A stretch of DNA of 64,000 nt, from contig NZ_CP053840.1 of assembly GCF_013201665.1 (NCBI RefSeq), positions 2,294,001-2,358,000 on the forward strand, read 5' to 3'. Below the pieces are notes generated by a model. The model was not told the DNA's origin. It searched no databases and was given only the letters and a program-made list of their open reading frames with translations. The position numbers and the translations under genes are program-made. How positions within the stretch are numbered: position 1 is the first letter of the stretch; each line of letters begins with the position of its first letter. Below, piece by piece: positions 9,041-30,416 of the stretch. This DNA comes from Arcobacter venerupis (GTDB taxonomy: Bacteria > Campylobacterota > Campylobacteria > Campylobacterales > Arcobacteraceae).

Positions 9041-9062
9041 ATATAGTAAAAAGGTGCTAAAA

Positions 9063-12212: not shown

Positions 12213-12218
12213 GATTTT

Positions 12219-14177: not shown

Positions 14178-15860
14178 TTATACGCCTTTTATTTCTAAAA
14201 TTAAATCAAATAATTTTTTGAATCCATTAAACTTTTCTTTTGAAAACTCTTCACACTTTGTTGGTAAATCGTGTTTTATTTGTTTTGCAATATTTGGATA
14301 ACTTTTAAATGAATCATCATATTTACCTATGATCTCATTAGCCATATCATTAATAATTGCAGCTTCAAAATAATCTTCAACTAAAAAATTATTATTAAAG
14401 TAATTGTCTTTTTTAGGATATACAACAACATACATATTTTTTAATTTTTCATATGTAAATGTGTTAATATCTTTATCCTCTTGAAAAACTTGTTTTAAAG
14501 CTTTTTTACCAGCATCATCTCTATCTAACAATGCTAGAATAGTTTGATTTTCTTTTGGTATAAATTTCTCAATAAAGTGTTGTAAACTATCTGTACCACC
14601 TATTGGTATATACTCAAATTTTAAAGTTGGATAATCTGTACTCAATTTATTTAAAGCAATTTTTATATACTCAATATCAGTCTTTCCTTCTACTAGTAAC
14701 AAATCACTATTTGAATTTAATATTATCTGCTGTTGAGTATAACTCATAGTATTGCCAGAAATTTCTTTCAATATTTCAGCTTTTTCACTTCCCTTACTCT
14801 GCCCATTTTCTAAATATTCCAAGTGATTATCAAATATATTCATTAATGTTGGTGAATGAGATGTAAATATTAAATTTTTGTGTTTATATTCTTCTAACAT
14901 ATTTTTAAGTTGGAGTTTATTTGCTACATGTATATGCGAGTCAGGTTCATCCAATAAAACAAGAGTTTTTCGATCTACTAAAAATTCTAAAATTGCTCTG
15001 ATTAAAATTTGTTTTTTCTGCCCTTCACTTAAATCTTCTGTTGTTAACTTTGTATTAAAATTGATTGTTATATTGGTAATAAGATCTGATTGTGAAGCAG
15101 AAATTAATTTTATAAATAATTCATATTCATACTCAATAACAAAAGTTTTAAATTCTTCAAAAGATATACTTATTATGTTGTTATTGTCTGGATTTAATCT
15201 TCTAACAAACTCTGTAATCATATTAGATTGATATTTACTCAAGTTGTTGGCATTAAATGTAAAAACAATATTTTCAACAGAAACAATACCTAAATTGTTT
15301 GATATAAAGTTCTGATTACTTTCTAATTCAGATAATAAAAATACAATTAATGCTTCATTCCAATAATCACTATCTATATAAAAAAGCTTTTGTTCAGGCA
15401 AGCTTCTCAGGTCATTATTTTTAACAGAAGTTATAAAATCACTATATGAATGTTTGTAGTATGTATCCCATAATCTTGTCTCTTCTCCACTATAAGAAGC
15501 TATTACTTTTGAAGGGAACCATCTATCTCCACTATCAATGAAATCTTTTTTCAATTTTTTTATATCATTTATATAAAAACCATATGTTCCATCAATAAGC
15601 TCAATTTTAATCTCTGTACTTGGCTCTTCACCCATAGAATATTCAATTACATAGCTAAAAGTAGGTTTTCTTTGTGGTGTTCCTATTTTATATAACCCAA
15701 TAAATATAGCACTAATTGCTTCTAATACATTACTCTTACCACTTCCATTGTTTCCTATTAAAACCGTTATGCCATCTTTATTTGTAAAGTCTAAATGAAA
15801 CCATTCATCCGCACCAGTTAGATTTTTAAAAGCTTTAATTTTTAAACTTTTAAGCTTCAT
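14178..15860 (-). CDS. OLD-family ATPase/TOPRIM nuclease
   Basis: 560 residues from ATG 15860. A TTG at 15878 is possible but would deepen the overlap with hsdS; GAGAG precedes the ATG. The ABC/SMC-type ATPase has Walker A LIGNNGSGKSNVLEAIS, signature LSEGQKKQ, and Walker B VLLDEPDSHIH. The C-terminal TOPRIM has LLLVEGKTDIEYI and ALLDRDDAGKKA, giving the catalytic Glu and DxD. OLD nucleases cut DNA in an ATP-linked way, and several are phage-defence effectors. It overlaps the end of hsdS by 11 bp, so it is coupled to the methylase/specificity pair. It likely acts as an effector here, since no HsdR is present (inference). Confidence 0.85.
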   Translation of the reverse strand: MKLKSLKIKAFKNLTGADEWFHLDFTNKDGITVLIGNNGSGKSNVLEAISAIFIGLYKIGTPQRKPTFSYVIEYSMGEEPSTEIKIELIDGTYGFYINDIKKLKKDFIDSGDRWFPSKVIASYSGEETRLWDTYYKHSYSDFITSVKNNDLRSLPEQKLFYIDSDYWNEALIVFLLSELESNQNFISNNLGIVSVENIVFTFNANNLSKYQSNMITEFVRRLNPDNNNIISISFEEFKTFVIEYEYELFIKLISASQSDLITNITINFNTKLTTEDLSEGQKKQILIRAILEFLVDRKTLVLLDEPDSHIHVANKLQLKNMLEEYKHKNLIFTSHSPTLMNIFDNHLEYLENGQSKGSEKAEILKEISGNTMSYTQQQIILNSNSDLLLVEGKTDIEYIKIALNKLSTDYPTLKFEYIPIGGTDSLQHFIEKFIPKENQTILALLDRDDAGKKALKQVFQEDKDINTFTYEKLKNMYVVVYPKKDNYFNNNFLVEDYFEAAIINDMANEIIGKYDDSFKSYPNIAKQIKHDLPTKCEEFSKEKFNGFKKLFDLILEIKGV

Positions 15861-17163
15861 TAAAAATCTCTCTTTCAAATTCTTCTAAAGATAATAATTT
15901 ATTTAGTATAGATCTTTTTTTCAATTCTTTATTCTGTTCTTTTATATTATCAATAAAATTGCATAGTTTATTTTGAACTTCTAAATTAGGTATAGGAATT
16001 TCCAAGTTTTCTAAATCAGGTTTTGAAATTTGTTTAAATGTTGATCCTTTTGCTTTTGCTATTATTTCATTTTCGAATAATTCTAAAATATTTAATAAAT
16101 ATTTGTTTGAAACTAAATTCTCATTAGCTCTGATTGCGCATACCCCTCTTCCCAAAAAATAACTATCATTTACGATAAAAGGTTTACCAATGGTTGCTCG
16201 TACTAAATATAAAATATCATTTTTTAATGTAATTTTATTTGAACTCTTTATATAACGTTTAGAAATTATTGTTTCATTTTTTATATCTGAGGCTCCACCT
16301 ATAAATTGATAACCTTCTCCAACATTATTTAACTCAGTACTTTTAGGTGAACTTCCCATAATAATAAATGAAATATCTTTTAGACATTTTAATTCATATT
16401 TTGATTTCATTGCATCTAAATTTAATAAATCAGAATAGCTCCAGCTTTTATTAATAGCTGAATATTTTAGAAAATGTAATAATTCAACTTTTCTATTATC
16501 TTCATTTTGTGTTATACCTAGTTCATTAATTAAATGATTTTTTATTATTAAATGATTTTTTTTAAACTCCAAAATTTGATTATTTGATAATTCAATTTTA
16601 TTTTTATAAGAATTAACAATATTTCTTTGTTCTTCTAAAGTAGGTAATGGTATTTGTACCTCTAAAAACTTATTTTCATTTATTCTTTGTCTCCCAGTGG
16701 TACCGCTACTAGAACTTTGTGCAAAGTTCTGAAATTTTTTAGTAGTTGTTAATAAGACTAAAAAATATGGTTCAATTTTTGTTGTATCTATATTATAAGC
16801 AAAAAAATCTGCTGTAATAATTGCTTTATCCACTTCTTTTGTAGCTAATCCAAAAGCACCATTTCTTGCATCAATTTTTGATAATAAGAACTGTCCTTCT
16901 TCAATAAGAAACTGTTTTTTAGTACCAATGTTTCGTCCATATTCCTTATCTCTTACAAAAACACCTTTATTATAAAGTTTGATAGTAACTCTTTTATATT
17001 CTATATCATCGTCAACTAAAATTTGTGTTTTGTTTCTCTTTAGAAATGTTCCAATTTTCTCAAGTTTAAAATTTTTATTATATTGAAATTGACTATCTAA
17101 AAGATGTGAAACGCTCCAATTTGATAATACTGAGAATTTTGAAAAATTCAGTAATTTACTCAT
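15850..17163 (-). CDS. hsdS: Type I-like specificity subunit (HsdS)
   Basis: 437 residues with two target-recognition domains separated and closed by conserved helical spacers: IPLPTLEEQRNIVNSYKNKI near 175-195, and IPIPNLEVQNKLCNFIDNI near 390-410. It should direct the adjacent methylase-nuclease to a bipartite site. Its start lies one base after the methylase stop, and its end overlaps the OLD gene. TRD content is variable, so the recognition sequence cannot be read from the protein. Confidence 0.92.
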   Translation of the reverse strand: MSKLLNFSKFSVLSNWSVSHLLDSQFQYNKNFKLEKIGTFLKRNKTQILVDDDIEYKRVTIKLYNKGVFVRDKEYGRNIGTKKQFLIEEGQFLLSKIDARNGAFGLATKEVDKAIITADFFAYNIDTTKIEPYFLVLLTTTKKFQNFAQSSSSGTTGRQRINENKFLEVQIPLPTLEEQRNIVNSYKNKIELSNNQILEFKKNHLIIKNHLINELGITQNEDNRKVELLHFLKYSAINKSWSYSDLLNLDAMKSKYELKCLKDISFIIMGSSPKSTELNNVGEGYQFIGGASDIKNETIISKRYIKSSNKITLKNDILYLVRATIGKPFIVNDSYFLGRGVCAIRANENLVSNKYLLNILELFENEIIAKAKGSTFKQISKPDLENLEIPIPNLEVQNKLCNFIDNIKEQNKELKKRSILNKLLSLEEFEREIFNEA

Positions 17164-17164
17164 T

Positions 17165-19471
17165 TTAATTCCATAACTTATTAGTTTTTCTATACTCTGT
17201 ATAGATTTTTAGAAGTTCAATAAGTTCATTATCTGTTTCTGCACCAGTTGTTGTTATACCAGCTTTTTTAATATCACTTATTGGAATTTCATAGTCAAAC
17301 TTTTGTTTTATAATTTCTTTAATTTCATTCTCTCTTTTTGTTTCAAGCTCTTTTAGTTCAGCATTTTTTATTTTCTTATCAATTGCACTTAAAGCTTCTT
17401 TACCCCTTAGTTTTAAAACTTTTTTTATTGAATCAATATCTTTTACATATTTTGCTTTTATATCTTTTGTAACTTCTTTTTTATTAGTTTCATATTCTCT
17501 AGCTTCTTCTTGTGTAAACTTTTTCAAAAATACTAAACTTGTTTTTACTGTAGCTCCTGAACTTATAAATATATCTTGTGGCATTGATACTATTAAAAGT
17601 ATTTTTGCTCTACTTTCAAAATATTCTCTTGCATTAGAAAGATTTGAGCTGTTTAATACACCTTCTGGAAGTACGATTCCCATTCTCCCACCTGGTTTTA
17701 GTAAATCCAAGCATCTCTCTATAAAAAGAACCTCTGTTGCTCCACTTCCTAAATCTCTTCCTACTTTAAACAGATTTCTTATTGGTTCATCAATATTATC
17801 TGTAACTTGACTCATTTCTTTTAGATATTGCTCTTTTACTATATCTAAATGTTTTTCTTTATCATAAGTTTCAGTATATCCAGCTCTTACAAAAAGCTCT
17901 TTTGAATATTTATTAACATAATTATCTATGATAGTTGGGTTTGTATATTTTGAATCTTGTTCTACAAGTGGATATTTTTTATCAAGATTTGTACCAAATG
18001 GAGGATTAGTAACAATTACATCAAATCTATTATGAAAAATACCATTTACATTTAAAAGCCCATCATTATGGTGAATACCATTATGCCCATCTCCGTGCAT
18101 AATCATATTCATTTTAGAAACTCTTGCCATTCTAGGGTTTGCATCTGTTCCAAAAATAGATTCATGAGATAGTTTTCTAATTTTTTCTTCTTGCTCTGCA
18201 TTTACCGTTGTTAAAAATACTTCATATTGTTTATTAAGTTCTTCATCATCAATATTTTCAAGTTCTTGCCCAAAAATCTCTTTTTGTTTTGCTTTTTTTA
18301 ATTCGATATAATAATTATCCATAGTTTTTTTGATACTCTCAAAAGTTTTTATCAAAAATCCACCACTACCCGCACAAGGATCACAAATAAGCTCATTTTC
18401 TTTTGGTTCTAATAAATCTACAATAAAATCAACCAAAACTCTAGGAGTAAAGAACTGTCCAAGTTCACCTCTAAAAGTTCTACCTAAGAATCTTTCAAAA
18501 GCTATACCTTTTACATCTGCACTTGTTGAAGTAAGATTGTAGATTTCAAGTTCTTTTACTATCTGCTCAAAACTTCGTTCTCTCAACTTGATTTTTTCAT
18601 TTTCATCAAAAATATTATCTGTTAAAAATTCTTTTTTAACATCTTCAAAAAGTCTTTGAATATATGAAGTTTCAGTTTCACTAGCACCCCTAACCATATT
18701 CCATGCTTCTTTTTGTTTTTCGAATTGCTTTAAAGAAAAAATTGATTCTTGCTTTGGATTTCTTTCATACATAATTTTAATAAATAGAATTTTACTAATC
18801 TCATCAAATGATGCTTCTGGAGATAATTTATCATTGTTTCTAATAATGTTATGACATTTATGTAGTAGTTTAGCAAATTCATCACCTGTAAACTCTTTTG
18901 TTTTAGCTAACGATTCTTCAAGCTTTTTATCATCTTGAATCGTATCAATATGTGGAATATCATTTACAGGTTGAAGTTTTAGTGGTAATTCTTCTTCTAC
19001 TGTTTTATAAACTTGTAATTCTTTTCCGTTTGAGATGGCGAATAGTTTTGCTCTACTCCATGTTGCATAATTGTAACCTTGATAACAATCTTCAACTTTT
19101 AGTCTTAAAGTATCTGCTTTAAGTTCTACAACTAAAAATGCAGTTTTTTTCTTTTTCTTTTCTTCTTCATTTTTCCAAACAACTATGTCAGCGCTTGCTC
19201 TTCCTGTACCTCTTTGCGAAGTTGTAAGTTTTACTTCTTCATCCATTTGAGAAAGTGAATAACCATACTCATTGATAAGTTTACAAATAAACTCTTGTCT
19301 TACTATTTCTTCTGGTTGCGTATCAAGATATTTATTCCTAATAGCTGAAAATATCTGCTTTTTTGTACTATCTTTGTATTTTGGACTTAGAATTGTTTTA
19401 ATAGTTTTCTTACCAGTTTTTTCATCTTCTATTACTATATCATCTGTTTCAAATAACTTATCGTAGTTCAT
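17165..19471 (-). CDS. Fusion of HsdR-N-type nuclease domain and HsdM N6-adenine methylase
   Basis: 768 residues. The N-terminus (about 50-160) is a type I restriction N-terminal nuclease domain: ASADIVVW (Asp95), FLVVELKAD (Glu117, Lys119) and QGYNYA (Gln131), a PD-(D/E)xK arrangement. The rest is a HsdM-type N6-methylase with motif I DPCAGSGGF (about 364-372) and motif IV NPPF (489-492). No helicase/translocase follows, so the layout recalls BcgI-like enzymes, in which cleavage and methylation share one chain plus a separate specificity subunit. First gene of the five-gene operon. The start ATG is 96 bp downstream of the helicase gene. Methylase activity is well supported; nuclease activity is inferred from the motif. 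Confidence 0.88.
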   Translation of the reverse strand: MNYDKLFETDDIVIEDEKTGKKTIKTILSPKYKDSTKKQIFSAIRNKYLDTQPEEIVRQEFICKLINEYGYSLSQMDEEVKLTTSQRGTGRASADIVVWKNEEEKKKKKTAFLVVELKADTLRLKVEDCYQGYNYATWSRAKLFAISNGKELQVYKTVEEELPLKLQPVNDIPHIDTIQDDKKLEESLAKTKEFTGDEFAKLLHKCHNIIRNNDKLSPEASFDEISKILFIKIMYERNPKQESIFSLKQFEKQKEAWNMVRGASETETSYIQRLFEDVKKEFLTDNIFDENEKIKLRERSFEQIVKELEIYNLTSTSADVKGIAFERFLGRTFRGELGQFFTPRVLVDFIVDLLEPKENELICDPCAGSGGFLIKTFESIKKTMDNYYIELKKAKQKEIFGQELENIDDEELNKQYEVFLTTVNAEQEEKIRKLSHESIFGTDANPRMARVSKMNMIMHGDGHNGIHHNDGLLNVNGIFHNRFDVIVTNPPFGTNLDKKYPLVEQDSKYTNPTIIDNYVNKYSKELFVRAGYTETYDKEKHLDIVKEQYLKEMSQVTDNIDEPIRNLFKVGRDLGSGATEVLFIERCLDLLKPGGRMGIVLPEGVLNSSNLSNAREYFESRAKILLIVSMPQDIFISSGATVKTSLVFLKKFTQEEAREYETNKKEVTKDIKAKYVKDIDSIKKVLKLRGKEALSAIDKKIKNAELKELETKRENEIKEIIKQKFDYEIPISDIKKAGITTTGAETDNELIELLKIYTEYRKTNKLWN

Positions 19472-19567: not shown

Positions 19568-22261
19568 TTAACTATTCATTTTAGATGCCAATAATGCTAC
19601 ATCTCTTTTATTATTTCTTTTTTCTAAATTCTTTAAAATTTTATTTTCAACTTCAGGAGACCAATATATTTTTAATTTTTCTTTAGCACGTGTTATCGCT
19701 GTATAAAAGATATTATGACTAATCATTTCTTCTACTTCATTACTTATAACTATTTTTACTGAATCATATTCTAAACCTTGAGCCTTATGAATTGAAACAG
19801 CGTAAGCAACCTGAAATGGAACAACTGCATCAGAAGAATCATCATCTTCATCTGTATTCTTATACATATTAACCTTAAAACGAATTATAGAATTTCCATT
19901 CATTGAATTTTCAATTAGTTCAAAATCATAAAGATCATTATCCATAGCATTGATAGTTTTATCTATTTCAATATCAAATTGAATCATATCTCCAAAAAGT
20001 TTGATTTCAATAATTTTTCCTTTTAGATTATTGTATATTGATGGACCAAATCTCTTTGTTTCGTTAAATAAAATAGGATCATTTACTTTATAAATATGAT
20101 CTCCCCATTTTATTGGGTTATGCATGTTATTTGATTGTAAAAACTTATTAATATTATTTATACCATAAAGTCCATCATAATTTAAACATAAAATTATTTC
20201 ATCATCTTCAAAATTCTCAAATATTGATTCATCTAATTTTACAGAATAACCATTTCTAGCCATATGCTCTAAAATATCTTCATCTATATTTCTTACTTTT
20301 CTCCATAATTCTAATAATTTTTCATTACTACTTCGATATGGTTTTGTCAATTCAGTTGTAGAATTCTCAGGTATAAAATTTTGAGCTATGTTAAACCAAT
20401 TACCGAAATTTATTGATTCTATTTGAAAGACATCCCCCACTAAAACCAGTAATTTAAAAGTTGCTTTATTTAAAATTTTTAACATATCAGCATTACTAAT
20501 CATACTACACTCATCAATAATCAATAAATCATATTCAGTTGAAGTTCTTCTTTCTGCTAAAAATTTTGCAATTGTTTTATAATCACAATTTGAAGCATAT
20601 ACTTTTCTTTTTAAATTATCTATTGCAGGATTGGTAATAGTTAAATATAGTTTTTTTCGTTCATTAAAAAAATTAGATATATGATTTATAATAGTAGATT
20701 TTCCCGTTCCTGCTGAACCATATATTAAAGCAACTGTCGAATTTTCAAACATTTGAATTAAAGATGTTTTTTTATCATCACAATCAATAGGATGCGTTGT
20801 ATTTTGTAACCAAGAAATAACAGAATTTGAGTAATTCTTAATGCCCTTAGAAGATAATTCTTTTAACATCTTAATTATGTCTATTGTATCTTCCTCATAT
20901 CCTCTAATATAAATGAAATTTTTATATTCTTCTAATTTACGATGATTATGTTTTGGAAGATAAAGTTTACTATTATATATTTTTATCAAATCATCAACGT
21001 TAGTAAAATTAATAATATCACTTTTTAGTGTAAAGAGTTCTCCTTTAACTTCTATATTATTTTTTATAAATCTTGCAAATAATTCATGCTCACGATTAAT
21101 AGGATTGATACTATCAAATAAATCATAACTTTTAGGATTGTGATTTTTTAAAGAAGTATTAAATGGCATTTGATCAAAAGGAATACATCCCCAGTCAAGC
21201 TTTAAATTTGAGAGATGCTTACAATTTTCAAAAGAATATTGTGATTTAATAATTTTATTATTGAGTTTATAAAGTAAATATTCAATTACATTATTTCCTG
21301 ATAAATTATTTTTTATTAATATTCTACATCTATCTAAAATATTAAATAAATTTACAAGCTTCAATTCAGAAGTTATTCTGTTCTTTATAATATTATAATT
21401 CATATCATCAAACTCAATTAATTCTACTAAACTTAAACTGTTTTGGGTTAAAAATATCATTAAGTTTTGGTATTCTTTATTTCCACTTTGTATTTTGGGA
21501 AACATACCAAATATTTTATTAAAATTATTTAATTCACATGGTCTAATAGAAACTTCCCAATTGTCTATAATATTTATAGGCATACTTTTACCTAATACAT
21601 TAATATTTTCTGTACAAATATGCAGTTTAACAGCATAATTGGGTAATATATCAAGCTTTGTAAAAGCTATAATCCTATCAAATTTACTTGAATAATCATT
21701 AGCTCTAATAAATGTTACCTCGTAATAAACTTCCTGATTTATGAAAAAAGGTTTTATTTTGTGAATGTAATATCTTTCATTATCAGGATTTTTAACTCTA
21801 AGTTGATTGATTTTTTTTGCAATTTTTTCATAATATTCTTTAGTCGTAGAATCAATATTAATAGGGAATTTATCTATATTTTCAAGTACATCCAAATTAA
21901 ATGTATTTTTAAGATAAGCTTTTATTTTTAATAAATATTCATAATACTTTAACATTAGTCTTTCTGAGTTTTCTTCATCAAGAGTATAATGAGATGCAAC
22001 AGGTTGCAAAAATTTGTGGAATTTATTCAAAAATTTAAACTTTGCAGTTGAATTAACATAAACTAATGCTTTATTTATATTTTCATATTCAACTTCTATA
22101 TCTTGACCATTACTATATGCTTTTAATGATACATGTTCAACAAAGTTTCTAAGCTGTGACATAATATTTTGAGATAAAAAACCTCGATCAGAATTATAAT
22201 TATCTATATTTTTATCAATAACCTGATTTATTGTAATAATAGCTATATCAATTTTTTGCAT
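19568..22261 (-). CDS. RecD/Pif1-like SF1B helicase with a HEPN-like N-terminal motif
   Basis: 897 residues. The C-terminal ~400 residues form an SF1 helicase: Walker A LIYGSAGTGKST (about 513-523), Walker B LLIIDECSMIS (about 579-589), and a UvrD-C2/RecD-type end with SIHKAQGLEYDSV and FYTAITRAKEK. The N-terminal ~500 residues are not recognised overall. They begin with a helical segment containing LRNFVEHVSLKAY (Arg38, His43), which fits the R-N-x3-H form of the HEPN RNase motif. It lies between the TerB/HNH module and the methylase operon, all on one strand with gaps of 61 and 96 bp. Probably a defence helicase. The HEPN reading is tentative. Confidence 0.75.
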   Translation of the reverse strand: MQKIDIAIITINQVIDKNIDNYNSDRGFLSQNIMSQLRNFVEHVSLKAYSNGQDIEVEYENINKALVYVNSTAKFKFLNKFHKFLQPVASHYTLDEENSERLMLKYYEYLLKIKAYLKNTFNLDVLENIDKFPINIDSTTKEYYEKIAKKINQLRVKNPDNERYYIHKIKPFFINQEVYYEVTFIRANDYSSKFDRIIAFTKLDILPNYAVKLHICTENINVLGKSMPINIIDNWEVSIRPCELNNFNKIFGMFPKIQSGNKEYQNLMIFLTQNSLSLVELIEFDDMNYNIIKNRITSELKLVNLFNILDRCRILIKNNLSGNNVIEYLLYKLNNKIIKSQYSFENCKHLSNLKLDWGCIPFDQMPFNTSLKNHNPKSYDLFDSINPINREHELFARFIKNNIEVKGELFTLKSDIINFTNVDDLIKIYNSKLYLPKHNHRKLEEYKNFIYIRGYEEDTIDIIKMLKELSSKGIKNYSNSVISWLQNTTHPIDCDDKKTSLIQMFENSTVALIYGSAGTGKSTIINHISNFFNERKKLYLTITNPAIDNLKRKVYASNCDYKTIAKFLAERRTSTEYDLLIIDECSMISNADMLKILNKATFKLLVLVGDVFQIESINFGNWFNIAQNFIPENSTTELTKPYRSSNEKLLELWRKVRNIDEDILEHMARNGYSVKLDESIFENFEDDEIILCLNYDGLYGINNINKFLQSNNMHNPIKWGDHIYKVNDPILFNETKRFGPSIYNNLKGKIIEIKLFGDMIQFDIEIDKTINAMDNDLYDFELIENSMNGNSIIRFKVNMYKNTDEDDDSSDAVVPFQVAYAVSIHKAQGLEYDSVKIVISNEVEEMISHNIFYTAITRAKEKLKIYWSPEVENKILKNLEKRNNKRDVALLASKMNS

Positions 22262-22322: not shown

Positions 22323-23927
22323 TTAATATGAAAGTTTTTGAAGTAACATTTCTACATTCTCAAATTTCTCATCTGTTTGTTTTATAAGTTCTTGAATTGC
22401 ATCTTTATCATTTTTCTTTTTGTCAATATAATAAACCGTCATAGTAACAGCAAGTCCTGTTATTGCACCAACAAAAATTGTTGTTAAAATATCAGAAAAT
22501 GGTTCTAAAACTACAGAGCCTTTTATTAGTGTATCTATATATTGTTCAGCTATAACACCCAAACTTATAATTAATCCACTAGCAACTACTTTTTTGGCTT
22601 CATGCATAGCTTCTTCATAAGTCATATTTTCAGGTGGGAAAATTAACATTTTAACAGCTCTAAATAATGAATAAATACCTTCTCTAATTATTCTTACAAC
22701 TCTTTTTCCTGTAGTTACAAACATATTAATGGCTGTAGTTACAAGACTTGATATAAATCCAGATAAAAAACCATCTTTAAATGCAATTGCTACATCTTTC
22801 CATTTTGCTTGAATTTTTAAAGCAATATTTTTAAGTCTCTCTTTTAAAACCATAAAAAATCTATCATCTTCAAATCCATTAGAAAAACCATTTTTATAAA
22901 TATCTAAAATTTCATCAAATAAAGCAGTAAAGAATTCAGTCATAACAAGACCTATAGCTTGCTGCATACCCATTTTTGAACCTTCATTTAATCCAGCAAC
23001 TGTTGTAGCTTTTGCAAATTTACCACTTGTATAGTATTCTTTATTAATTTTTTTGTCTATTTCTTTTCTTGCTATTTCATCTGATTCTAAAGCTTTTTTA
23101 TTATCAATTTTTGATAACTCTTCAAGTTTCCTTAACTCATTTTGTTCTTGCGGAGATAAATCAATTTTTGATTTTAATTCATCTATTTTTTTTATTCTTT
23201 CATCTTTTTTATTCAAAAATGTTTGCATATCATAAGCTTTTTTAGAACGATTATTTGTCGAAGTTGTTGGTTTTAAGTTAGTCTCGGTATTAGCCAAAAC
23301 TTTTCCATCTATTTGAGCTAAAATTCTTCCTGCATCATCATGAATTTCTTTTGCTGATTTAATATGGTCTAGATCATTACTTTCATTTTGATTAAGCTTT
23401 TTATCAGTCATATAATCAACTGCATTTCCATCCTTCCTACTTTTAGAATATTTTTTATTTATATTAATATAATTTATATCTTTATGATATACATCACTAT
23501 TATACTCACCTCTATTTTCATAAGCTTTTTGTTCATCTTCTGTAGCATAAATTCCATCCCTAACATTATGAACAGTATCTACATTTCCACCAACTTTATC
23601 ATAAGCAGCTACTATTTTACCAAGACCAAAAGGTGTTACAATAGAATTAATAACCTCTTTTCTACAATCAATAATCAATTTATCAAATCTTTCTTGATTG
23701 AAATCTTTCTTAAATTGTTCTAAAAATTCTTTTGCTTCATTCTTTGAAACTGTAAAATTATATTTAAAATCATAATGTTCATCAATATTTTTATATGCTT
23801 GTTCAACTTTATTCTCATCAACTTCTGAATTTAGAAATTCATTAACTAGTTCTTTATCTATAGTTTCATACACTGAAATACTTTCTATTATTTTCTTTCT
23901 TTTTTTAAATCTATCTACTCTATCCAT
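22323..23927 (-). CDS. Membrane protein with an HNH-like nuclease signature
   Basis: 534 residues, family not recognised. After a charged N-terminus, residues 185-230 read DLDHI (Asp187-His188), NLKPT (Asn217) and NNRSKK (Asn226, Lys229), spaced like an HNH endonuclease core (DH...NL...NxxK). A charged helical linker (230-300) follows. Then come amphipathic and hydrophobic segments, with likely membrane helices at about 385-403, 449-466 and 481-500, and a short helical tail. A nuclease tethered to the inner membrane is the simplest reading. It follows TerB by 77 bp and precedes the helicase by 61 bp. The function is inferred from motif spacing only. Confidence 0.6.
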   Translation of the reverse strand: MDRVDRFKKRKKIIESISVYETIDKELVNEFLNSEVDENKVEQAYKNIDEHYDFKYNFTVSKNEAKEFLEQFKKDFNQERFDKLIIDCRKEVINSIVTPFGLGKIVAAYDKVGGNVDTVHNVRDGIYATEDEQKAYENRGEYNSDVYHKDINYININKKYSKSRKDGNAVDYMTDKKLNQNESNDLDHIKSAKEIHDDAGRILAQIDGKVLANTETNLKPTTSTNNRSKKAYDMQTFLNKKDERIKKIDELKSKIDLSPQEQNELRKLEELSKIDNKKALESDEIARKEIDKKINKEYYTSGKFAKATTVAGLNEGSKMGMQQAIGLVMTEFFTALFDEILDIYKNGFSNGFEDDRFFMVLKERLKNIALKIQAKWKDVAIAFKDGFLSGFISSLVTTAINMFVTTGKRVVRIIREGIYSLFRAVKMLIFPPENMTYEEAMHEAKKVVASGLIISLGVIAEQYIDTLIKGSVVLEPFSDILTTIFVGAITGLAVTMTVYYIDKKKNDKDAIQELIKQTDEKFENVEMLLQKLSY

Positions 23928-24004
23928 AAATTACTCCAATAAATTTTATTTTTAAAATATTTAAAACATAAATTTTAAGAGATAGATGTTTCTACCTCTT
24001 AAAA

Positions 24005-24712
24005 TTAAGCTGCAAATCTTGCTTTCAATTCTATAATAAATTTATTTTCTGTATCATCTGATTCAGGTTTATAATTAATCATTTTAATTGAACTATTAAA
24101 AGCCTCTAAAAATGCTTTTTCTTTTTCATGAATAAATCCATCTGCTTCAATAACAAGCTCAATTAGATTTTTTATACTTTCATAATTAGATTCACTAACT
24201 CTTTCTAAATACTTCATAGCCTCATTAAAAGAAGGTGGATTATTTTTAAATTCTTCAATTTGTGTAACTATGTGTTGAGGATAATTTAAACTTGCCATTC
24301 CCCCAACAAATTCATTTATTTCAATCAATTCTTCACTAGAGATCTCTCCATCAGCATTAGCCACAGCCATTCCCATAGCAGTTGAAGCAATAATATAATT
24401 AAAATATTCTTTATCTCCTTGAAATTGAGAAATAGCTTTTTTTAATTCTTCCTCATACTTTTCAGCTTTTTTGTTTAGTTCAGCAATTTTTTCATTCTTT
24501 GCTTGCTCTTCTTCTTCCTCTTTTCTTGATAATACATATCCAACACTTGCTCCCGCTGCTCCTGCGGCACCTGCTGCTGCAATTGCACCTGCCCCCGTTA
24601 AAGAAGCTGCTAAAGTTGCTGCACCAAATATTGAACCACCACCCGTAAATGGTGCTGCTGCTACGGCACCTATACCTAATACTGCTAATCCTAAAATCTT
24701 ACCAAATCCCAT
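24005..24712 (-). CDS. TerB-like protein with glycine/alanine-rich membrane N-terminus
   Basis: 235 residues. Residues 1-60 are a run of Gly/Ala-rich hydrophobic segments (glycine-zipper-like), followed by a charged coiled coil (64-92). The C-terminal ~120 residues are TerB/DjlA-N-like, with paired acidic loops VANADGEISSEEL (about 117-129) and IEADGFIHEKEK (about 188-199) that could bind a metal. TerB-type domains are common in stress and phage-defence islands. The gene lies between a small membrane-anchored protein and the HNH-membrane protein, all on one strand. The biochemical role is unknown. Confidence 0.7.
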   Translation of the reverse strand: MGFGKILGLAVLGIGAVAAAPFTGGGSIFGAATLAASLTGAGAIAAAGAAGAAGASVGYVLSRKEEEEEQAKNEKIAELNKKAEKYEEELKKAISQFQGDKEYFNYIIASTAMGMAVANADGEISSEELIEINEFVGGMASLNYPQHIVTQIEEFKNNPPSFNEAMKYLERVSESNYESIKNLIELVIEADGFIHEKEKAFLEAFNSSIKMINYKPESDDTENKFIIELKARFAA

Positions 24713-24813
24713 TTTTTATCCTTTTAATATTATTTAATTCTCTTAGATTTTCCAGAATATGAAAACTATTTAAAATATTTCAATTCTAAAGTATAAATCT
24801 TTTAAAACCTTGA

Positions 24814-25449
24814 TTATTTATCCTCCTGTATTGATGAGATAATATTATTAAACTTAACAACTACATCTTCAGTTACAGAATCATTTACACAAACTTTTTG
24901 AATAAATCTAGCAAGTGAAAAAGCCTCTTTTAGAAGCTCTTTCTCTTTGATTCTAAATTTTTCGTAGTTTGTTTCTTGTTTGATTATTTCAGCAAGGTGC
25001 ATTACAATATCTCCAAGCAGATTATTTACTTTAAAAAGTAAATCGGTTGTTACTTTAATATTATGCTGAGCCATTTCATCATAGATTTCTTCACCATAAG
25101 TTTTTGAGTTAAAATCTACTTCTTGATATTCAATTTTTCCTAAATCTATATTTTCTATTTTTGTATACAAAGAGATAAAATCTACAAAAGAATCATGATA
25201 AACCTTTTTTTTCATATGTTGTAAGTTATCTAGGTTGATCTCTTCTTCCACTTGATATTTATCTTCTTCATCTCTAGTAGAAAAAGAGTAATTATCCAAA
25301 GCTTCAGTTTTTGCTTCGAACCATTCTTGAATAGATACTAATCCATCTTCAATTTTTCCATCAATTTCATATTGATTTTCTTCATAAACTCTTTTTGCAA
25401 CATAACCCACACCTAAAACAGCCATTCCACCTAAAATAATTGGTAACAT
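24814..25449 (-). CDS. Small membrane-anchored helical protein, unknown function
   Basis: 211 residues. One N-terminal membrane helix (LPIILGGMAVLGVGYVAK) is followed by a mainly helical acidic domain. No catalytic motif was recognised. It starts 32 bp downstream of the WYL regulator and precedes the TerB gene, so it is probably a structural or sensory member of that module. The hydrophobic N-terminus lacks a cleavage site, so it should stay in the inner membrane. Confidence 0.6.
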   Translation of the reverse strand: MLPIILGGMAVLGVGYVAKRVYEENQYEIDGKIEDGLVSIQEWFEAKTEALDNYSFSTRDEEDKYQVEEEINLDNLQHMKKKVYHDSFVDFISLYTKIENIDLGKIEYQEVDFNSKTYGEEIYDEMAQHNIKVTTDLLFKVNNLLGDIVMHLAEIIKQETNYEKFRIKEKELLKEAFSLARFIQKVCVNDSVTEDVVVKFNNIISSIQEDK

Positions 25450-25481
25450 ATTAATCTCCTAATATTTTAATTTAGAAAATT

Positions 25482-26375
25482 CTAACATTGGCTTTGGACA
25501 GGTTGTGTCCTTTTTATATAGCCATTTAAAATATTGTTCAGTTTTTCTACTAAATCATTGGGAGAGAGAATTTGAATATAAGGAATCCAATATTTAACTA
25601 GATTTATTATTTCATCCTCAAAAGCAATTTTTGTTAAAACTATGAAATACTGATCATTTTCCTCAACTATTTTCATATTTGATAAAACTTTTTTTCTTAA
25701 AAAGTAATCTTTTGCACTATTATCTATTTTTAGCTGTACTTCTTTTAATTTATTAGAAAACCAATTTATTTCATCTTTTTCTATCTCTTTTAAAAGTTCA
25801 GAATTTAGATTAAATTTATCTTCTTTAGTTTTTAGGTTCTCTATTTTTGTAAAAGAATATGTTTTTAATTTTCCACTATCATTTGCACATAAGTACCAAA
25901 CACCATTTGAGTTTATAAGTTTATATGGCTCAACTATTTTTTCTTTATCTTTATAAAGAAACTCTACAACATGATGATTGATTATTGCACGACTTAGTTT
26001 TTCAAAATCATCTTTTTTATTTTCAATCATTTCAAAACCACTATTTTTTACTAAAAAAACTTTATTAATTTTATTTTCTAAAATCTCTGTTAAAAATTGA
26101 TTAGTAAGAGTTGGATATAGGGATTTTATACCACTTATAGTAGCAAAGTTTTTTATATCTTCAAGATTTAGTTTTCCTAATGCATACTCATGAAGAGAAT
26201 ATAAGTTTTTTTCTTTTTTTATTGGAATATAAATAAATCTTTCATTTAAATCTCTACTTATAGTTTTTGTAGTTGTACCAAATTCTAAAGCCAACTCTTT
26301 TAATGTGAATTTTTCACCATTGTTTAGTTTTGTAAGGATATATGCTAATCTTTTTGCTAATAAATCGTGAGCCAT
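25482..26375 (-). CDS. WYL-domain transcriptional regulator
   Basis: 297 residues. The N-terminal helix-turn-helix (NNGEKFTLKELALEFGTTTK, then TISRDLNERF) is followed by a WYL domain with EPYKLINSNGVWYLCAND, the WYL ligand-binding motif, and a C-terminal extension. WYL proteins such as BrxR and CapW repress defence genes and sense nucleic-acid ligands. It is first in a same-strand row of defence-like genes, so it is the likely switch for that row. No operator could be pinned down. Confidence 0.85.
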   Translation of the reverse strand: MAHDLLAKRLAYILTKLNNGEKFTLKELALEFGTTTKTISRDLNERFIYIPIKKEKNLYSLHEYALGKLNLEDIKNFATISGIKSLYPTLTNQFLTEILENKINKVFLVKNSGFEMIENKKDDFEKLSRAIINHHVVEFLYKDKEKIVEPYKLINSNGVWYLCANDSGKLKTYSFTKIENLKTKEDKFNLNSELLKEIEKDEINWFSNKLKEVQLKIDNSAKDYFLRKKVLSNMKIVEENDQYFIVLTKIAFEDEIINLVKYWIPYIQILSPNDLVEKLNNILNGYIKRTQPVQSQC

Positions 26376-27752: not shown

Positions 27753-27902
27753 TTAACTCCTTTTTAGTTTGTCAAGTTTCTTTTTGATTTTATGTTTAAT
27801 TCTTCTATTTTCACTAGTTAGCGATAGTAAAAACGCTAATCCTTGTTTTGTCCAATCTTTGAAACCTTTTTTAGCTTCATTTTGAATATAAATATTTTTC
27901 AT
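27753..27902 (-). CDS. Hypothetical 49-aa lysine-rich protein
   Basis: MKNIYIQNEAKKGFKDWTKQ followed by a hydrophobic stretch and a basic tail. Its ATG overlaps the TGA of the DUF2958 gene (ATGA), and AGGAAA precedes it at proper spacing, so translational coupling is evident. Only two bases separate its stop from the HTH gene. Function unknown. Confidence 0.6.
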   Translation of the reverse strand: MKNIYIQNEAKKGFKDWTKQGLAFLLSLTSENRRIKHKIKKKLDKLKRS

Positions 27903-28204
27903 TTGAATTTCCTAATAATCTCTAATGCTGTTGGCTTAAATGATATATCCCTTTCAACACCTAATCCTAAAGCTCCTTTTATAGATTCTATTTCTTTTAA
28001 AGAGAAATATCCAAGTTCACTTTCAAATCCAACAACATAACCATAACAAGTAGATTTATCCTCTTTTGAGATTTCTATTATGTACCATGTCCATTGTGCA
28101 TCAGGAGTAAAAAGTTTAATTTGGCAAATAGGATTTAAACTTCTTTCTGTTTCGTATAAATCAGGAATATTTTCTAAAATAGATTGTGGAATTAAACTAT
28201 TCAT
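27899..28204 (-). CDS. DUF2958 domain protein
   Basis: 101 residues matching DUF2958: IPDLYETE, WTWYIIEIS, GYVVGFESELGYFSLKEI and a VERDISFKP end. The family is common in plasmids, ICEs and prophages, next to recombination and single-strand DNA genes. Its function is unknown. The ATG overlaps the Rad52 stop region, and its stop overlaps the next small gene, so it is an internal gene of a tightly packed operon. Confidence 0.8.
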   Translation of the reverse strand: MNSLIPQSILENIPDLYETERSLNPICQIKLFTPDAQWTWYIIEISKEDKSTCYGYVVGFESELGYFSLKEIESIKGALGLGVERDISFKPTALEIIRKFK

Positions 28205-28947
28205 TAAGCTGCTCCTTGTTCTATCGCTTTATACCAAGTCTTAGACTTACTATCAAACCTAAAGCCGCAAGCTTTAATTGAATCTTTCTTACTAAATATA
28301 TCATCACCAGTTACAATTAAAAATCCATTATTTTCTACAATATTTAATCCTAGATTGAAAAGAGATTGATATTCATATTGGTTAAAAGAAGAATTATTTT
28401 GTTGTGTATTTCTTGTTTGATTTGGATTTTGATAAGGTTGTTGCTGTTGTTGGTTATTCTGTGGTTGTCTTTGATTATAGTTTTGGTTTTGATTCTGCTG
28501 ATAAGCACTATTTTGATGATTCTTTGTTTTATCATAAAGTGAATTTCCAAACTGATTCCCAAAGCTTCTAAAACATCTTTTAATTGCATCTGTTACAGCT
28601 TCTTTGGCTGCACCCTCATGAGCATCTGCCAAAGATTTAGCAACACCAGTTCCAAATCCTACATCTTGTCTATTTACATCTAGTGTATGATTAGTATTAT
28701 GAATTTGAATTTGTACTACTGCTTTATAGCAAACTACATTATTTTGGTTTTGATTAAGCTCTTGTGATACTTGATCTAATTTTGAAATAGAATAAGACCA
28801 ATTACCAAATCCAAATACTTTATTTGCAGTATCTATAACATCAAATCCTTCAATATATGAAAGATTGATATTTCCTTTTTCTCTTGTTTTTATTCTATTA
28901 CTATCTAGTTCTTGAGTTAAGATAGTTAATTGGTTTTTATCAAACAT
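28204..28947 (-). CDS. Rad52-family single-strand annealing protein
   Basis: 247 residues. The N-terminal ~130 residues fit the Rad52/Rad22 fold: YIEGFDVIDTANKVFGFGNW, then GTGVAKSLADAHEGAAKEAV and DAIKRCFRSFGNQFGNSLYD. A Gln/Asn-rich linker (about 140-195) leads to a small C-terminal domain ending GFRFDSKSKTWYK. Such proteins anneal complementary strands in phage and element recombination. TAAGGAG precedes the start. The low-complexity linker is typical of a flexible tail that recruits SSB. Confidence 0.88.
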   Translation of the reverse strand: MFDKNQLTILTQELDSNRIKTREKGNINLSYIEGFDVIDTANKVFGFGNWSYSISKLDQVSQELNQNQNNVVCYKAVVQIQIHNTNHTLDVNRQDVGFGTGVAKSLADAHEGAAKEAVTDAIKRCFRSFGNQFGNSLYDKTKNHQNSAYQQNQNQNYNQRQPQNNQQQQQPYQNPNQTRNTQQNNSSFNQYEYQSLFNLGLNIVENNGFLIVTGDDIFSKKDSIKACGFRFDSKSKTWYKAIEQGAA

Positions 28948-28957
28948 AATTTACTCC

Positions 28958-29590
28958 TTATGCTACTAATTTTTGAGATTGATAATCTTTTATTTGTTCT
29001 TCAATAACCAAGATATCATCTGTTTCATTTGCTTCTATTTCAGTATTATTTGCAGATGTTCTTTTGGTATTAACTTTTATTTTTGCTGGAGTTGAAATTG
29101 TAATTGGTGTAACTTCTACAAATTTCTTTAGCTCTTTTTTTCCCTCTTTGGTTTGCAGGGCTTTTTCAATAGCTGCATAATCAACTGAAAATTTCACATA
29201 TCCAAGATTTATTACTGCATTTTCATCTTTGATTAGAATTTCATCTTTGGTTTTACTTGTTGCATTTGTTAGAGTTAGAGAACTAATGATATTTCCATCG
29301 ATTCTATCTATTCCATTCTCTAAAAATACATTTGCAGTTAGTTCTTTGGCTATTTCAAGTGCTGAATTTAGTTTCTTTTTTAAGGCTTGTAAATCTGATA
29401 TATCAGAAGTTAAAGTATCAATTTTTGATTTGATTTCATTTAGAGATAAACCTATATAATCTGCTCTTTGGTAATATGGTTTTGAAGTATCTTCTAAAAC
29501 TGATTTTAGATAATCCTTGAAGTGAGAATTTGTTTTATTCTCACCAAGGTATTCTATTTGAGTTTGGAGTTGATAATTTATTAGTTTCAT
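28958..29590 (-). CDS. Gp157-like coiled-coil protein
   Basis: 210 residues. A central coiled coil (about 50-100, LNEIKSKIDTLTSDISDLQA) is followed by a small domain with DEILIKDENAVINLGYVKF and a DYAAIEKALQTKEGKK helix. This resembles Siphovirus Gp157-type proteins, which accompany phage recombinases. It lies 10 bp upstream of the Rad52 gene and in operon with it. Role unproven; possibly a host-nuclease modulator. Confidence 0.6.
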   Translation of the reverse strand: MKLINYQLQTQIEYLGENKTNSHFKDYLKSVLEDTSKPYYQRADYIGLSLNEIKSKIDTLTSDISDLQALKKKLNSALEIAKELTANVFLENGIDRIDGNIISSLTLTNATSKTKDEILIKDENAVINLGYVKFSVDYAAIEKALQTKEGKKELKKFVEVTPITISTPAKIKVNTKRTSANNTEIEANETDDILVIEEQIKDYQSQKLVA

Positions 29591-29600
29591 TTTTTACTCC

Positions 29601-30416
29601 TTATGCAGCAACTAGATAATTTGAATCTTTGATACTTGCTATCTTTTCTGCTATATCCCAAATACCTTTATTTACTTCTGTGTCCTTAGAAATTGATGTG
29701 ATTTCTTTACTTGTGAATCTTCTTTTTGTATCTTTGTTGATACCTTGGATATTTCCTCTTAAAAGGTTTTCTTGGATTACATTTAAAACTGTGTAAAGGT
29801 CATCTTTTGAGTCTTGTTCTCTATGAGGAATTAGTAAATCATTATGATTGATTTCTAGGTGTTCTTCAAATCTTAGAGGAATTGAGTATTTTGCAAATGA
29901 TTCTTTTTCACTTTGGTTTAGTGTGATTGATTCTAGTTTTTCTATTTTTTGCATTAGTTTTGGTTTGATAGCTGTTATATTAGCAACAGCATTTGATACA
30001 TCATTATCTCTTTCACCAAGGTGTTTGATTTTATAGGTTTCAAATACGCTATCTGAGATAACTAGACCATTTGCACATACGAATCTGAAAATACCTGCTG
30101 AAATTGAGAAAGCTTTACTTCTATCATGGCTATTGAATAGTAAAAGTTCTACTGCGTTATCTTTTGGATTGAGTAAATCTTCAAAGTGTCTGAATCTAAC
30201 ACAATGTTGTTGGAAGCCTTCTTTTTCTTCATCTCTTACATTAGCAACTGCAACATTAACTGGATACCAATTATTTGCTCTTATTTCTTCAATTACATCT
30301 ATTGTTGGAATGAAGTGGTATTTATCACTAACTTCACTATGTGGTTCTTGAGTGAACAAAGTTAGAGCTATACTATTTAGTTGCTCATTGCTTAGTGGTT
30401 TTATTTTTACTGACAT
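29601..30416 (-). CDS. DUF932 (phage/plasmid-like) protein
   Basis: 271 residues with the DUF932 pattern: VRFRHFEDLLNP, LLLFNSHDRSKAFSISAGIF, RFVCANGLVISDSVF and a helical C-terminus. Common on plasmids and integrative elements, of unknown biochemistry. AAGGAT precedes the ATG. First large gene of the recombination operon, followed by Gp157, Rad52 and DUF2958. Confidence 0.82.
   Translation of the reverse strand: MSVKIKPLSNEQLNSIALTLFTQEPHSEVSDKYHFIPTIDVIEEIRANNWYPVNVAVANVRDEEKEGFQQHCVRFRHFEDLLNPKDNAVELLLFNSHDRSKAFSISAGIFRFVCANGLVISDSVFETYKIKHLGERDNDVSNAVANITAIKPKLMQKIEKLESITLNQSEKESFAKYSIPLRFEEHLEINHNDLLIPHREQDSKDDLYTVLNVIQENLLRGNIQGINKDTKRRFTSKEITSISKDTEVNKGIWDIAEKIASIKDSNYLVAA

What the first reader, a model, noticed from the sequence alone, without database searches (positions are those of the whole stretch)
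22323..26375. WYL / membrane anchor / TerB / HNH-membrane protein module
Four same-strand genes with gaps of 32-101 bp. The 534-aa protein has a DH...NL...NxxK pattern (187-229) suggesting an HNH nuclease, then membrane helices. TerB carries a glycine-zipper-like membrane N-terminus, and a third protein is membrane-anchored. A WYL repressor heads the row. A membrane-tethered nuclease under WYL control would be a new defence design.
Basis: partly seen in the sequence, partly recalled or inferred. Interest (0 to 1): 0.72.

Follow-up and report, generated by a model that had tools for sequence, protein, structure and literature searches.

The report
Membrane HNH nuclease with swappable sensors
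A small bacterial gene cluster encodes what looks like a nucleic-acid-cutting enzyme built into the cell membrane next to membrane proteins that may be sensors; relatives of the enzyme in many bacteria sit beside different known phage sensors, which suggests a modular way of attacking viral DNA as it enters the cell.

Summary
In detail: four minus-strand genes (WYL regulator, 211-aa membrane protein, Gly-zipper/TerB protein, 534-aa protein) with gaps of 32, 101 and 77 bp. The 534-aa protein is very probably an HNH-type nuclease: H188, N217 and N226 are kept in 92 of 92 aligned proteins that have the column, and the domain model (pLDDT 94) retrieves mainly HNH-type nucleases, each match weak. 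Its C-terminal half is a conserved helical, membrane-like region. It is already in PADLOC-DB (2023) as candidate PDC-M40B; no paper on it turned up in the library searched. The genes are co-inherited: the four-gene set recurs in five other Campylobacterota loci. New here: the partner varies while the nuclease stays. Partners are TerB with a Gly-zipper, TerB fused behind JukA (Juk) or BnzA (Bunzi), JukA or BnzA without it, or a PDC-M09A coiled coil; the nuclease's tails differ with the partner. 365 of 5426 complete E. coli genomes carry most of a related locus. Likely function: a membrane sensor recruits a membrane-bound nuclease to sites of phage DNA entry, under WYL control. Fold and membrane parts are well supported; sensing and recruitment are inferred; nothing is bench-tested.

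The parts
25482..26375 (-). WYL-domain transcription regulator, 297 aa
   Evidence: WYL 6.4e-10 (above cut-off), HTH_11 and HTH_DeoR just below cut-off, WCX 0.013; PADLOC WYL 3.1e-31
24814..25449 (-). 211-aa protein with N-terminal membrane segment; its N-terminus is like that of PDC-M09A partners
   Evidence: hhalign of six orthologues against ten PDC-M09A-type proteins: 95.5%, E 1.5e-8, over about the first 100 residues only; no family
24005..24712 (-). Partner, probable sensor: Gly-zipper membrane N-terminus, coiled coil, TerB domain (residues 108-204)
   Evidence: PF05099 1.6e-7
23971..24006 (-). Hairpin with 16 pairs starting in the TerB stop codon, before the nuclease gene
   Evidence: z -4.5; strong hairpin in 7 of 8 folded TerB-nuclease gaps
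22323..23927 (-). 534-aa HNH/membrane effector (PADLOC PDC-M40B)
23628..23927 (-). N-terminal tail of the effector, residues 1-100: likely partner-docking region (differs with partner type)
23559..23591 (-). Motif GGNVDTVHNVR, residues 113-123, role unknown
   Evidence: G113, G114, V116, T118, N121 in 9 of 9. The 92 of 93 is biased, since the scans searched for this motif
23241..23420 (-). HNH core, residues 170-229 (D187 H188, N217 L218, N226)
22431..23024 (-). C-terminal helical, membrane-like region, residues 302-499, with N401 and R415 kept in 68 of 68
19568..22261 (-). Neighbour, probably not part of the module: 897-aa RecD-like helicase PDC-S53
   Evidence: in the five relatives with the full gene set no such gene directly follows the nuclease (L017 and L096 hold little sequence beyond)

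Best explanation
A phage-entry defence module. The TerB protein (and probably the 211-aa protein) sits in the inner membrane through its Gly-zipper or hydrophobic N-terminus and detects phage genome entry or an entry-made membrane structure. It holds or recruits the 534-aa effector through the effector's N-terminal tail. The effector is embedded in the membrane by its C-terminal helices and cuts DNA at the entry site with its HNH domain. WYL tunes transcription, and a hairpin between the sensor and nuclease genes probably keeps the nuclease scarce. Shown by computation: HNH motif and predicted fold, conserved membrane-like region, co-inheritance, partner exchange with proteins of known phage-defence systems. 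Inferred: sensing, docking, DNA as target, site of action, direction of WYL control.
For: HNH: H188, N217, N226 in 92 of 92, D187 D in 87 and E in 5; domain model pLDDT 94 with strand-strand-helix carrying DH, N and N; by my reading of labels 43 of 50 rows of its VIA list are HNH-type nucleases or Cas proteins, best Vvn Z 6.1, also Cap5, Gme HNH, BrxU; weak profile hits to GmrSD_C in 9 of 68 and endonuclease VII in 6 of 56, best 1.3e-5. Membrane. Co-inheritance: L013, L014, L017 in the window's order, L015 and L096 with WYL last. Sensors: JukA N-terminal to a TerB-like end (hhalign 97%, E 8.8e-11); BnzA over 1-526 N-terminal to zipper plus TerB (L020); BnzA beside a nuclease whose residues 10-132 match BnzB at 3.2e-9 (L045). 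Tails go with partner. Defence context: type I R-M and PDC-S53 in the window, I-E CRISPR in two E. coli islands read, single Hachiman, Mokosh, Lamassu and R-M genes near relatives (no control).
Against: No structural match is strong alone (Foldseek best E 0.25; VIA Z at most 6.1), and many rows are copies of Cas9. The helices of the C-terminal half are only moderately hydrophobic (means 0.2 to 1.5), so insertion is likely but not certain. The tail-partner link is confounded with ancestry: 42 of 43 PDC-M09A rows lie in one clade of 46. No same-strand WYL was found near about half the relatives. The window's TerB protein matches neither JukA nor BnzA. No complex was modelled and there are no phage data.
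Confidence: 0.5

Rival explanations
1. The membrane half is the true effector: like JukB it opens pores in the phage-made vesicle or the inner membrane, and the HNH domain is auxiliary (trims or only binds DNA).
For: N401 and R415 are kept in 68 of 68 in the membrane-like region, more than an anchor needs; [quoted passage not shown]
Against: The HNH residues are as conserved (92 of 92). No JukB match appeared for the window protein in PADLOC at E 0.1, though I did not confirm that the library holds a JukB model.
Confidence: 0.2
2. Abortive infection: on activation the nuclease cuts host DNA or RNA and stops or kills the cell rather than sparing it.
For: HNH enzymes can have several nucleic acids as target (recalled); VIA rows include CBASS Cap5; the hairpin before the nuclease gene and WYL control suggest that it is dangerous to over-make (inference).
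Against: Membrane tethering and the link to JukA, which is said to rescue the cell (recalled from the Juk preprint abstract, not read here), point to local action.
Confidence: 0.22
3. Not a host defence but an exclusion or maintenance function of the mobile elements that carry it.
For: Found in 73 plasmid records and 7 records of four Aeromonas jumbo phages; the window has an integrase at 9054-10358.
Against: All 468 E. coli places are on chromosomes; neighbours include defence genes; some partners are proteins of known phage-defence systems. Exclusion of rival phages by an element would still be a kind of phage defence.
Confidence: 0.1
4. The four genes plus the 897-aa helicase and the type I R-M genes are one large composite system.
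For: All on one strand with short gaps.
Against: In relatives with the full gene set no such helicase directly follows the nuclease.
Confidence: 0.05

Closest known systems
PDC-M40 (PADLOC-DB 2.0.0 candidate)
   Same: The 534-aa protein matches PDC-M40B at 4.3e-68 over residues 71-504
   Different: No window partner matches another PDC-M40 model at E 0.1; a PDC-M40C match sits beside the relative in viral contig L092. I saw no PDC-M40A model in any output
Juk (jumbo phage killer, JukA/JukB)
   Same: Sensor plus recruited membrane-active effector (PMC13282480); JukA is the N-terminal part of the partner in the Enterobacterales relatives scanned
   Different: Window partner has no JukA match; effector is an HNH/membrane protein without a JukB match
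Bunzi (BnzA/BnzB)
   Same: BnzA is the partner in L045 and is fused to the TerB partner in L020; the L045 nuclease begins with a BnzB-like stretch
   Different: No BnzA or BnzB match in the window's four proteins
Shango and Dionysus (TerB-containing systems)
   Same: TerB protein in phage defence (passages of PMC10250203, PMC12926258, PMC10952713 seen); Dionysus is said to prevent vesicle formation
   Different: Shango has helicase and ATPase partners; Dionysus proteins were not compared here
WYL proteins fused to HNH or TerB domains (Makarova et al. 2014)
   Same: The same domains in combination (PMC4012209, passage seen)
   Different: There fusions in one protein; here separate genes, with a membrane half on the HNH protein
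GmrSD/BrxU, CBASS Cap5, Cas9 HNH domain, Vvn
   Same: HNH/His-Me type fold by weak matches; that Vvn and Cap5 belong to it is recalled
   Different: None is known to me with such a membrane half (recalled)

Membership tests
HNH (His-Me finger, beta-beta-alpha metal) nucleases | Catalytic (D/E)H, N and N/H signature conserved | tested here: met
   D187 87 D + 5 E; H188, N217, N226 92 of 92 (L040 lacks the region); 9 of 9
HNH (His-Me finger, beta-beta-alpha metal) nucleases | Beta-beta-alpha fold around these residues | tested here: met
   strands 184-188 and 218-222, helix 223-229, pLDDT about 97-98; 43 of 50 VIA rows are HNH-type nucleases or Cas proteins by my reading, each Z at most 6.1; Foldseek none at E 0.001
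HNH (His-Me finger, beta-beta-alpha metal) nucleases | Profile match above a curated cut-off | tested here: not met
   no HNH model for the window protein; GmrSD_C in 9 of 68 members, best E 0.0049; cut-offs for these members were not shown
HNH (His-Me finger, beta-beta-alpha metal) nucleases | Metal-dependent nuclease activity | not testable with these tools
   needs purified protein
PDC-M40 | PDC-M40B protein | tested here: met
   4.3e-68
PDC-M40 | Other PDC-M40 proteins alongside | tested here: not met
   no PDC-M40 match of the WYL, TerB or 211-aa proteins at E 0.1; an A model was not seen, so only C is known to have been in the library
Juk | JukA sensor | tested here: not met
   for the window's TerB protein; matched in L004, L022, L028, L030
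Bunzi | BnzA and BnzB | tested here: not met
   for the window; BnzA matched in L020 and L045, BnzB N-terminus in the L045 nuclease
TerB proteins | PF05099 above cut-off | tested here: met
   32.1 bits, cut-off 24.4
WYL regulators | HTH plus WYL domain | tested here: met
   WYL above cut-off; HTH models just below theirs

The most novel reading that the evidence does not exclude
Juk, Bunzi and the TerB-type modules are faces of one modular immune family in which interchangeable phage-entry sensors (JukA, BnzA, Gly-zipper/TerB, PDC-M09A coiled coil) dock onto the tail of a common membrane-embedded HNH nuclease, so that the nuclease is already in the membrane, or in the membrane of the phage-made vesicle, when DNA arrives and can cut genomes that are shielded from cytoplasmic nucleases.
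Probability: 0.3. Interest if true: 0.82.

Novelty: new variant of a known kind. Interest (0 to 1): 0.62.

Why it matters
If right, it joins two named systems (Juk, Bunzi) and several unassigned ones by actual gene fusions, gives a sequence-level reason to look for sensor docking on the effector tails, and offers an answer to how bacteria reach phage DNA that is shielded at entry. It is directly testable: 365 of 5426 complete E. coli genomes have a place covering at least 80% of a related three-gene locus (425 have any match), so phage assays in a K-12 strain are simple.

Tried and rejected
Rejected: that the pattern is chance. Rejected: cobalamin adenosyltransferase and chemotaxis protein, the labels that some records put on the nuclease and its partner; no profile that I ran supports them. 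Rejected: MscS-like channel from sequence (E 3.7 and worse). Rejected as noise: a Cas6 match of the window nuclease (0.0022). Discounted: LeoBC matches of 30 of 67 partner-type neighbours; the one of the window protein is 1.2e-5 over its Gly-rich and coiled part. Foldseek gave no match at E 0.001 for either model. The viral-contig scan with the single protein found no relative; with the alignment, two.

Paper searches: 'PDC-M40' and 'PDC-S53' held by 0 papers; HNH/TerB/antiphage/membrane/WYL; JukA/JukB; Bunzi/BnzA/TerB/HNH; jumbo phage killer/JukA/YaaW; cobalamin adenosyltransferase and defence terms; PDC-S/phage defence candidate/PADLOC; Bunzi/Juk/TerB/BnzB/JukB; membrane-anchored nuclease terms. 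I saw listings, and passages of nine papers; none of what I saw describes this module. The Juk preprint is not held and I did not look up the Bunzi primary paper, so absence from print is not shown.

Cautions on counts. Of 210 genome loci found, 80 were kept by the tool; they were sought by the GGxVxTxHN motif, so its conservation in them is partly by construction, while the HNH residues were not in the pattern. The 93 proteins hold near-copies. Partner labels were typed by hand: L026 and L027 (JukA) and L032, L038, L066 (TerB) were labelled by likeness to neighbours and not scanned as whole proteins; L025 is 99% identical to L004. Tail lengths use the first start codon after a stop, so N-tails can be too long. 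L040, L071 and L093 (broken, short or cut) were dropped before the tree. The iterated profile linking the 211-aa protein to PDC-M09A may have drifted; only about the first 100 residues are supported. rests on a shallow alignment (Neff 1.4). The 92 flanking proteins come from 15 loci, chosen by hand among the 183 of at least 180 aa; the table shows 25 of 127 families, and there was no control set. On the tree 'changes' are gains or losses: JukA needs 2 in 7 rows; BnzA needs 2 in 2 rows, which shuffles match always.
Full report
WHAT IS THERE. On the minus strand lie WYL 25482-26375, a 211-aa protein 24814-25449, a TerB protein 24005-24712 and a 534-aa protein 22323-23927, with gaps of 32, 101 and 77 bp. 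WYL and TerB are confirmed by Pfam. The window's 534-aa protein has no accepted Pfam or NCBIfam family and no PHROGs match at E 0.1 but matches PADLOC's candidate PDC-M40B at 4.3e-68. The next gene in the row is an 897-aa RecD-like helicase, PDC-S53 (1317 bits), followed by a methylase and a specificity subunit of type I R-M.

FAMILY. Relatives of the 534-aa protein: 73 plasmid records, 40 of Klebsiella; 7 records of four Aeromonas phages of about 260 kb; 210 loci in genome contigs of which 80 were kept; 2 viral contigs; 26 of 397 genomes of the class; 2 of 60 near relatives, the window's own included. They span Pseudomonadota, Campylobacterota, Bacillota, Spirochaetota, Bacteroidota and others. 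This patchy spread, often on mobile DNA, fits defence genes. Of 5426 complete E. coli genomes 425 match a WYL/partner/nuclease query at 95% identity or more, 365 with a place covering at least 80% of it, all places on chromosomes. In the two E. coli loci read (ES1, SWHEFF_58) it lies next to a complete type I-E CRISPR-Cas locus, with an integrase and tRNA-Phe a few genes further on.

IS IT AN HNH NUCLEASE? In 93 aligned proteins, window included, H188, N217 and N226 are each invariant in the 92 that have the column (L040 lacks the region); D187 is D in 87 and E in 5; K229 is K in 72 and M in 18. In the first, independent set D187, H188, N217, L218 and N226 are invariant in 9 of 9. The whole-protein model has mean pLDDT 82 with most blocks between residues 120 and 310 at 90-98; the domain alone has 94. 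DH sits at the end of strand 184-188, N217 just before strand 218-222 and N226 in helix 223-229, the HNH order. Foldseek's top two hits are Cas9 HNH domains, but at E 0.25 and 0.5. VIA, a second look at Foldseek's own list, ranks Vvn endonuclease first (Z 6.1, 118 residues, rmsd 4.1), then mainly Cas9, with Gme HNH, CBASS Cap5 and BrxU; by my reading 43 of 50 rows are such nucleases or Cas proteins. Five of the 43 (7el1, 4l0k, 7eni, 7enr, 7enh) have labels that name neither Cas9 nor HNH, and that Vvn and Cap5 are of this fold is recalled; the other 7 rows are unrelated. Read without gaps, H188 falls about one residue from SpCas9 H840 in row 7s4x (54-188 against 807-907; the label of 4zt9 names H840A in nuclease-inactive Cas9); this is a rough check, since the alignment has gaps. 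Sequence profiles give weak support: GmrSD_C in 9 of 68 (best 0.0049) and endonuclease VII in 6 of 56 (best 1.3e-5). Together the fold claim is good although each match is weak alone; activity is untested.

MEMBRANE HALF. Residues 302-533 are predicted as long helices at pLDDT about 60-88. Family-averaged hydropathy peaks near 397, 451 and 475-493; the window's strongest segment is 480-498 (mean 1.98). N401 and R415 are invariant in 68 of 68, with G326, G390, T397, T405 and T406 in 63 to 67. This is more than an anchor would need and leaves room for a pore-like role.

PARTNERS. In Campylobacterota the set is co-inherited: L013, L014 and L017 have WYL, 211-type, TerB, nuclease in the window's order; L015 and L096 have 211-type, TerB, nuclease, WYL (the L096 WYL by resemblance); L016 has WYL-TerB-nuclease and L002 TerB-nuclease-WYL without the 211-type gene. 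Over 93 loci I classed the partner as TerB type in 29, PDC-M09A type in 44, JukA in 7, BnzA in 2, other or none in 11 (labels set by hand, see Tried and rejected). Three findings carry the weight. In Enterobacterales relatives L004, L022 and L030 the partner begins with JukA (about 230 residues, 1.7e-57 to 3e-61) and goes on with a part that matches the TerB-type partners (hhalign 97%, E 8.8e-11, from L004, L022, L025, L027). In L020, an Arcobacteraceae MAG, one 776-aa frame is BnzA over 1-526 (6e-115), then a Gly-zipper, then a TerB end (BLAST to the window TerB protein 5e-22). In Salipaludibacillus L045 BnzA (1.2e-125) lies before the nuclease with overlapping ends, and the nuclease's residues 10-132 match the N-terminus of BnzB (3.2e-9) while the remainder is PDC-M40B. 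L028 has JukA with no TerB-like end found. On the nuclease tree JukA needs 2 changes and BnzA 2, gains or losses.

TAILS FOLLOW PARTNERS. With TerB partners, 29 of 29 nucleases have an N-terminal tail of 84-196 and a C-terminal tail of 35-67 residues; with PDC-M09A partners the N-tail is 24-73 and the C-tail 103-111 in 42 of 44, the exceptions being the contig-cut L018 and the short L071; JukA rows have 73-90 and 45-46, BnzA rows 67/47 and 154/26, and the 11 others are mixed. But 42 of 43 M09A rows on the tree lie in one clade of 46, so this is mainly one old switch and not 44 independent cases. Still, with the BnzB-like start of L045, it makes the tails the likely docking sites.

EXPRESSION. 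A hairpin with 16 pairs starts in the TerB stop codon. Gaps between TerB and nuclease genes give z -3.6 to -7.9 in 7 of 8 Campylobacterota loci folded (not L012, z -0.1); L013/L014 and L015/L096 are alike in sequence, the others differ. L002 and L094 have gaps of 8 and 26 bp with no room for such a stem, and the Vibrio locus L019 shows none. Five other gaps in the row or its relatives give z between -1.9 and +1.0. I read it as a partial terminator or stability element that lowers nuclease output. WYL protein BrxR near defence genes is a repressor (PMC9122601, passages seen).

HOW IT PROBABLY WORKS. Review PMC13282480 (passages seen) states that JukA detects early phage proteins at the entry vesicle, that effectors are diverse, and that JukB is recruited by JukA and forms pores there; it also says that Dionysus prevents vesicle formation, and PMC12926258 (passages seen) calls Dionysus a system with a TerB homologue. 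By analogy, the window's Gly-zipper/TerB protein is the sensor and the 534-aa protein a recruited, membrane-embedded nuclease. The JukA fusions are the reason to borrow this mechanism; that TerB senses the same thing is a guess.

VERDICT. Real, conserved and co-inherited; nuclease fold and membrane region well supported; defence role likely, with the nuclease already a listed candidate; mechanism a reasoned proposal. The partner exchange with JukA and BnzA is the part a specialist should find surprising. I did not find it in what I saw of the papers searched, but the Juk and Bunzi primary papers were not read, so it may be partly known.

Noticed in passing
window 23971-24006; same place in L013, L014, L015, L016, L017, L096: Strong hairpin between TerB and nuclease genes, place kept while the sequence differs in most; z -3.6 to -7.9; absent in L012.
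   Followed up: partly
window 23559-23591 (residues 113-123): GGNVDTVHNVR motif, invariant at five positions in 9 of 9; role unknown. The wider count is biased by the search pattern.
   Followed up: no
E. coli chromosomes, e.g. L114, L115: 425 of 5426 E. coli genomes match a WYL/M09A/nuclease locus (365 over 80% of it); the two read lie beside type I-E CRISPR-Cas near an integrase and tRNA-Phe.
   Followed up: partly
L007 and Aeromonas phages D3, D6, D9, LAh10: Phages of about 260 kb carry the nuclease; in LAh10 (L007) with an M09A-type partner, possibly for use against rival phages.
   Followed up: partly
window 17165-19471: Type I-like methylase with an N-terminal HSDR_N_2 domain (8.3e-23); none of the ORFs of 150 aa or more between 8000 and 15849 looked like a separate HsdR.
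   Followed up: no
window 10866-15878: Three minus-strand genes: NOV_C protein, HATPase protein with a weak restriction-type end, and AAA ATPase with a weak OLD-like TOPRIM match; perhaps further defence genes.
   Followed up: no
window 19568-22261: RecD-like helicase PDC-S53, nearly full-length match of 1317 bits; no paper held under that name.
   Followed up: partly
window 27899-30416 and 9054-10358: DUF2958, Rad52, Gp157-like and DUF932 genes and a phage-type integrase suggest an integrated mobile element.
   Followed up: no
public annotations of relatives: The nuclease is often labelled cobalamin adenosyltransferase and its partner chemotaxis protein; nothing here supports these names.
   Followed up: partly
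L040: In an uncultured Helicobacter the nuclease gene is split into two frames.
   Followed up: no
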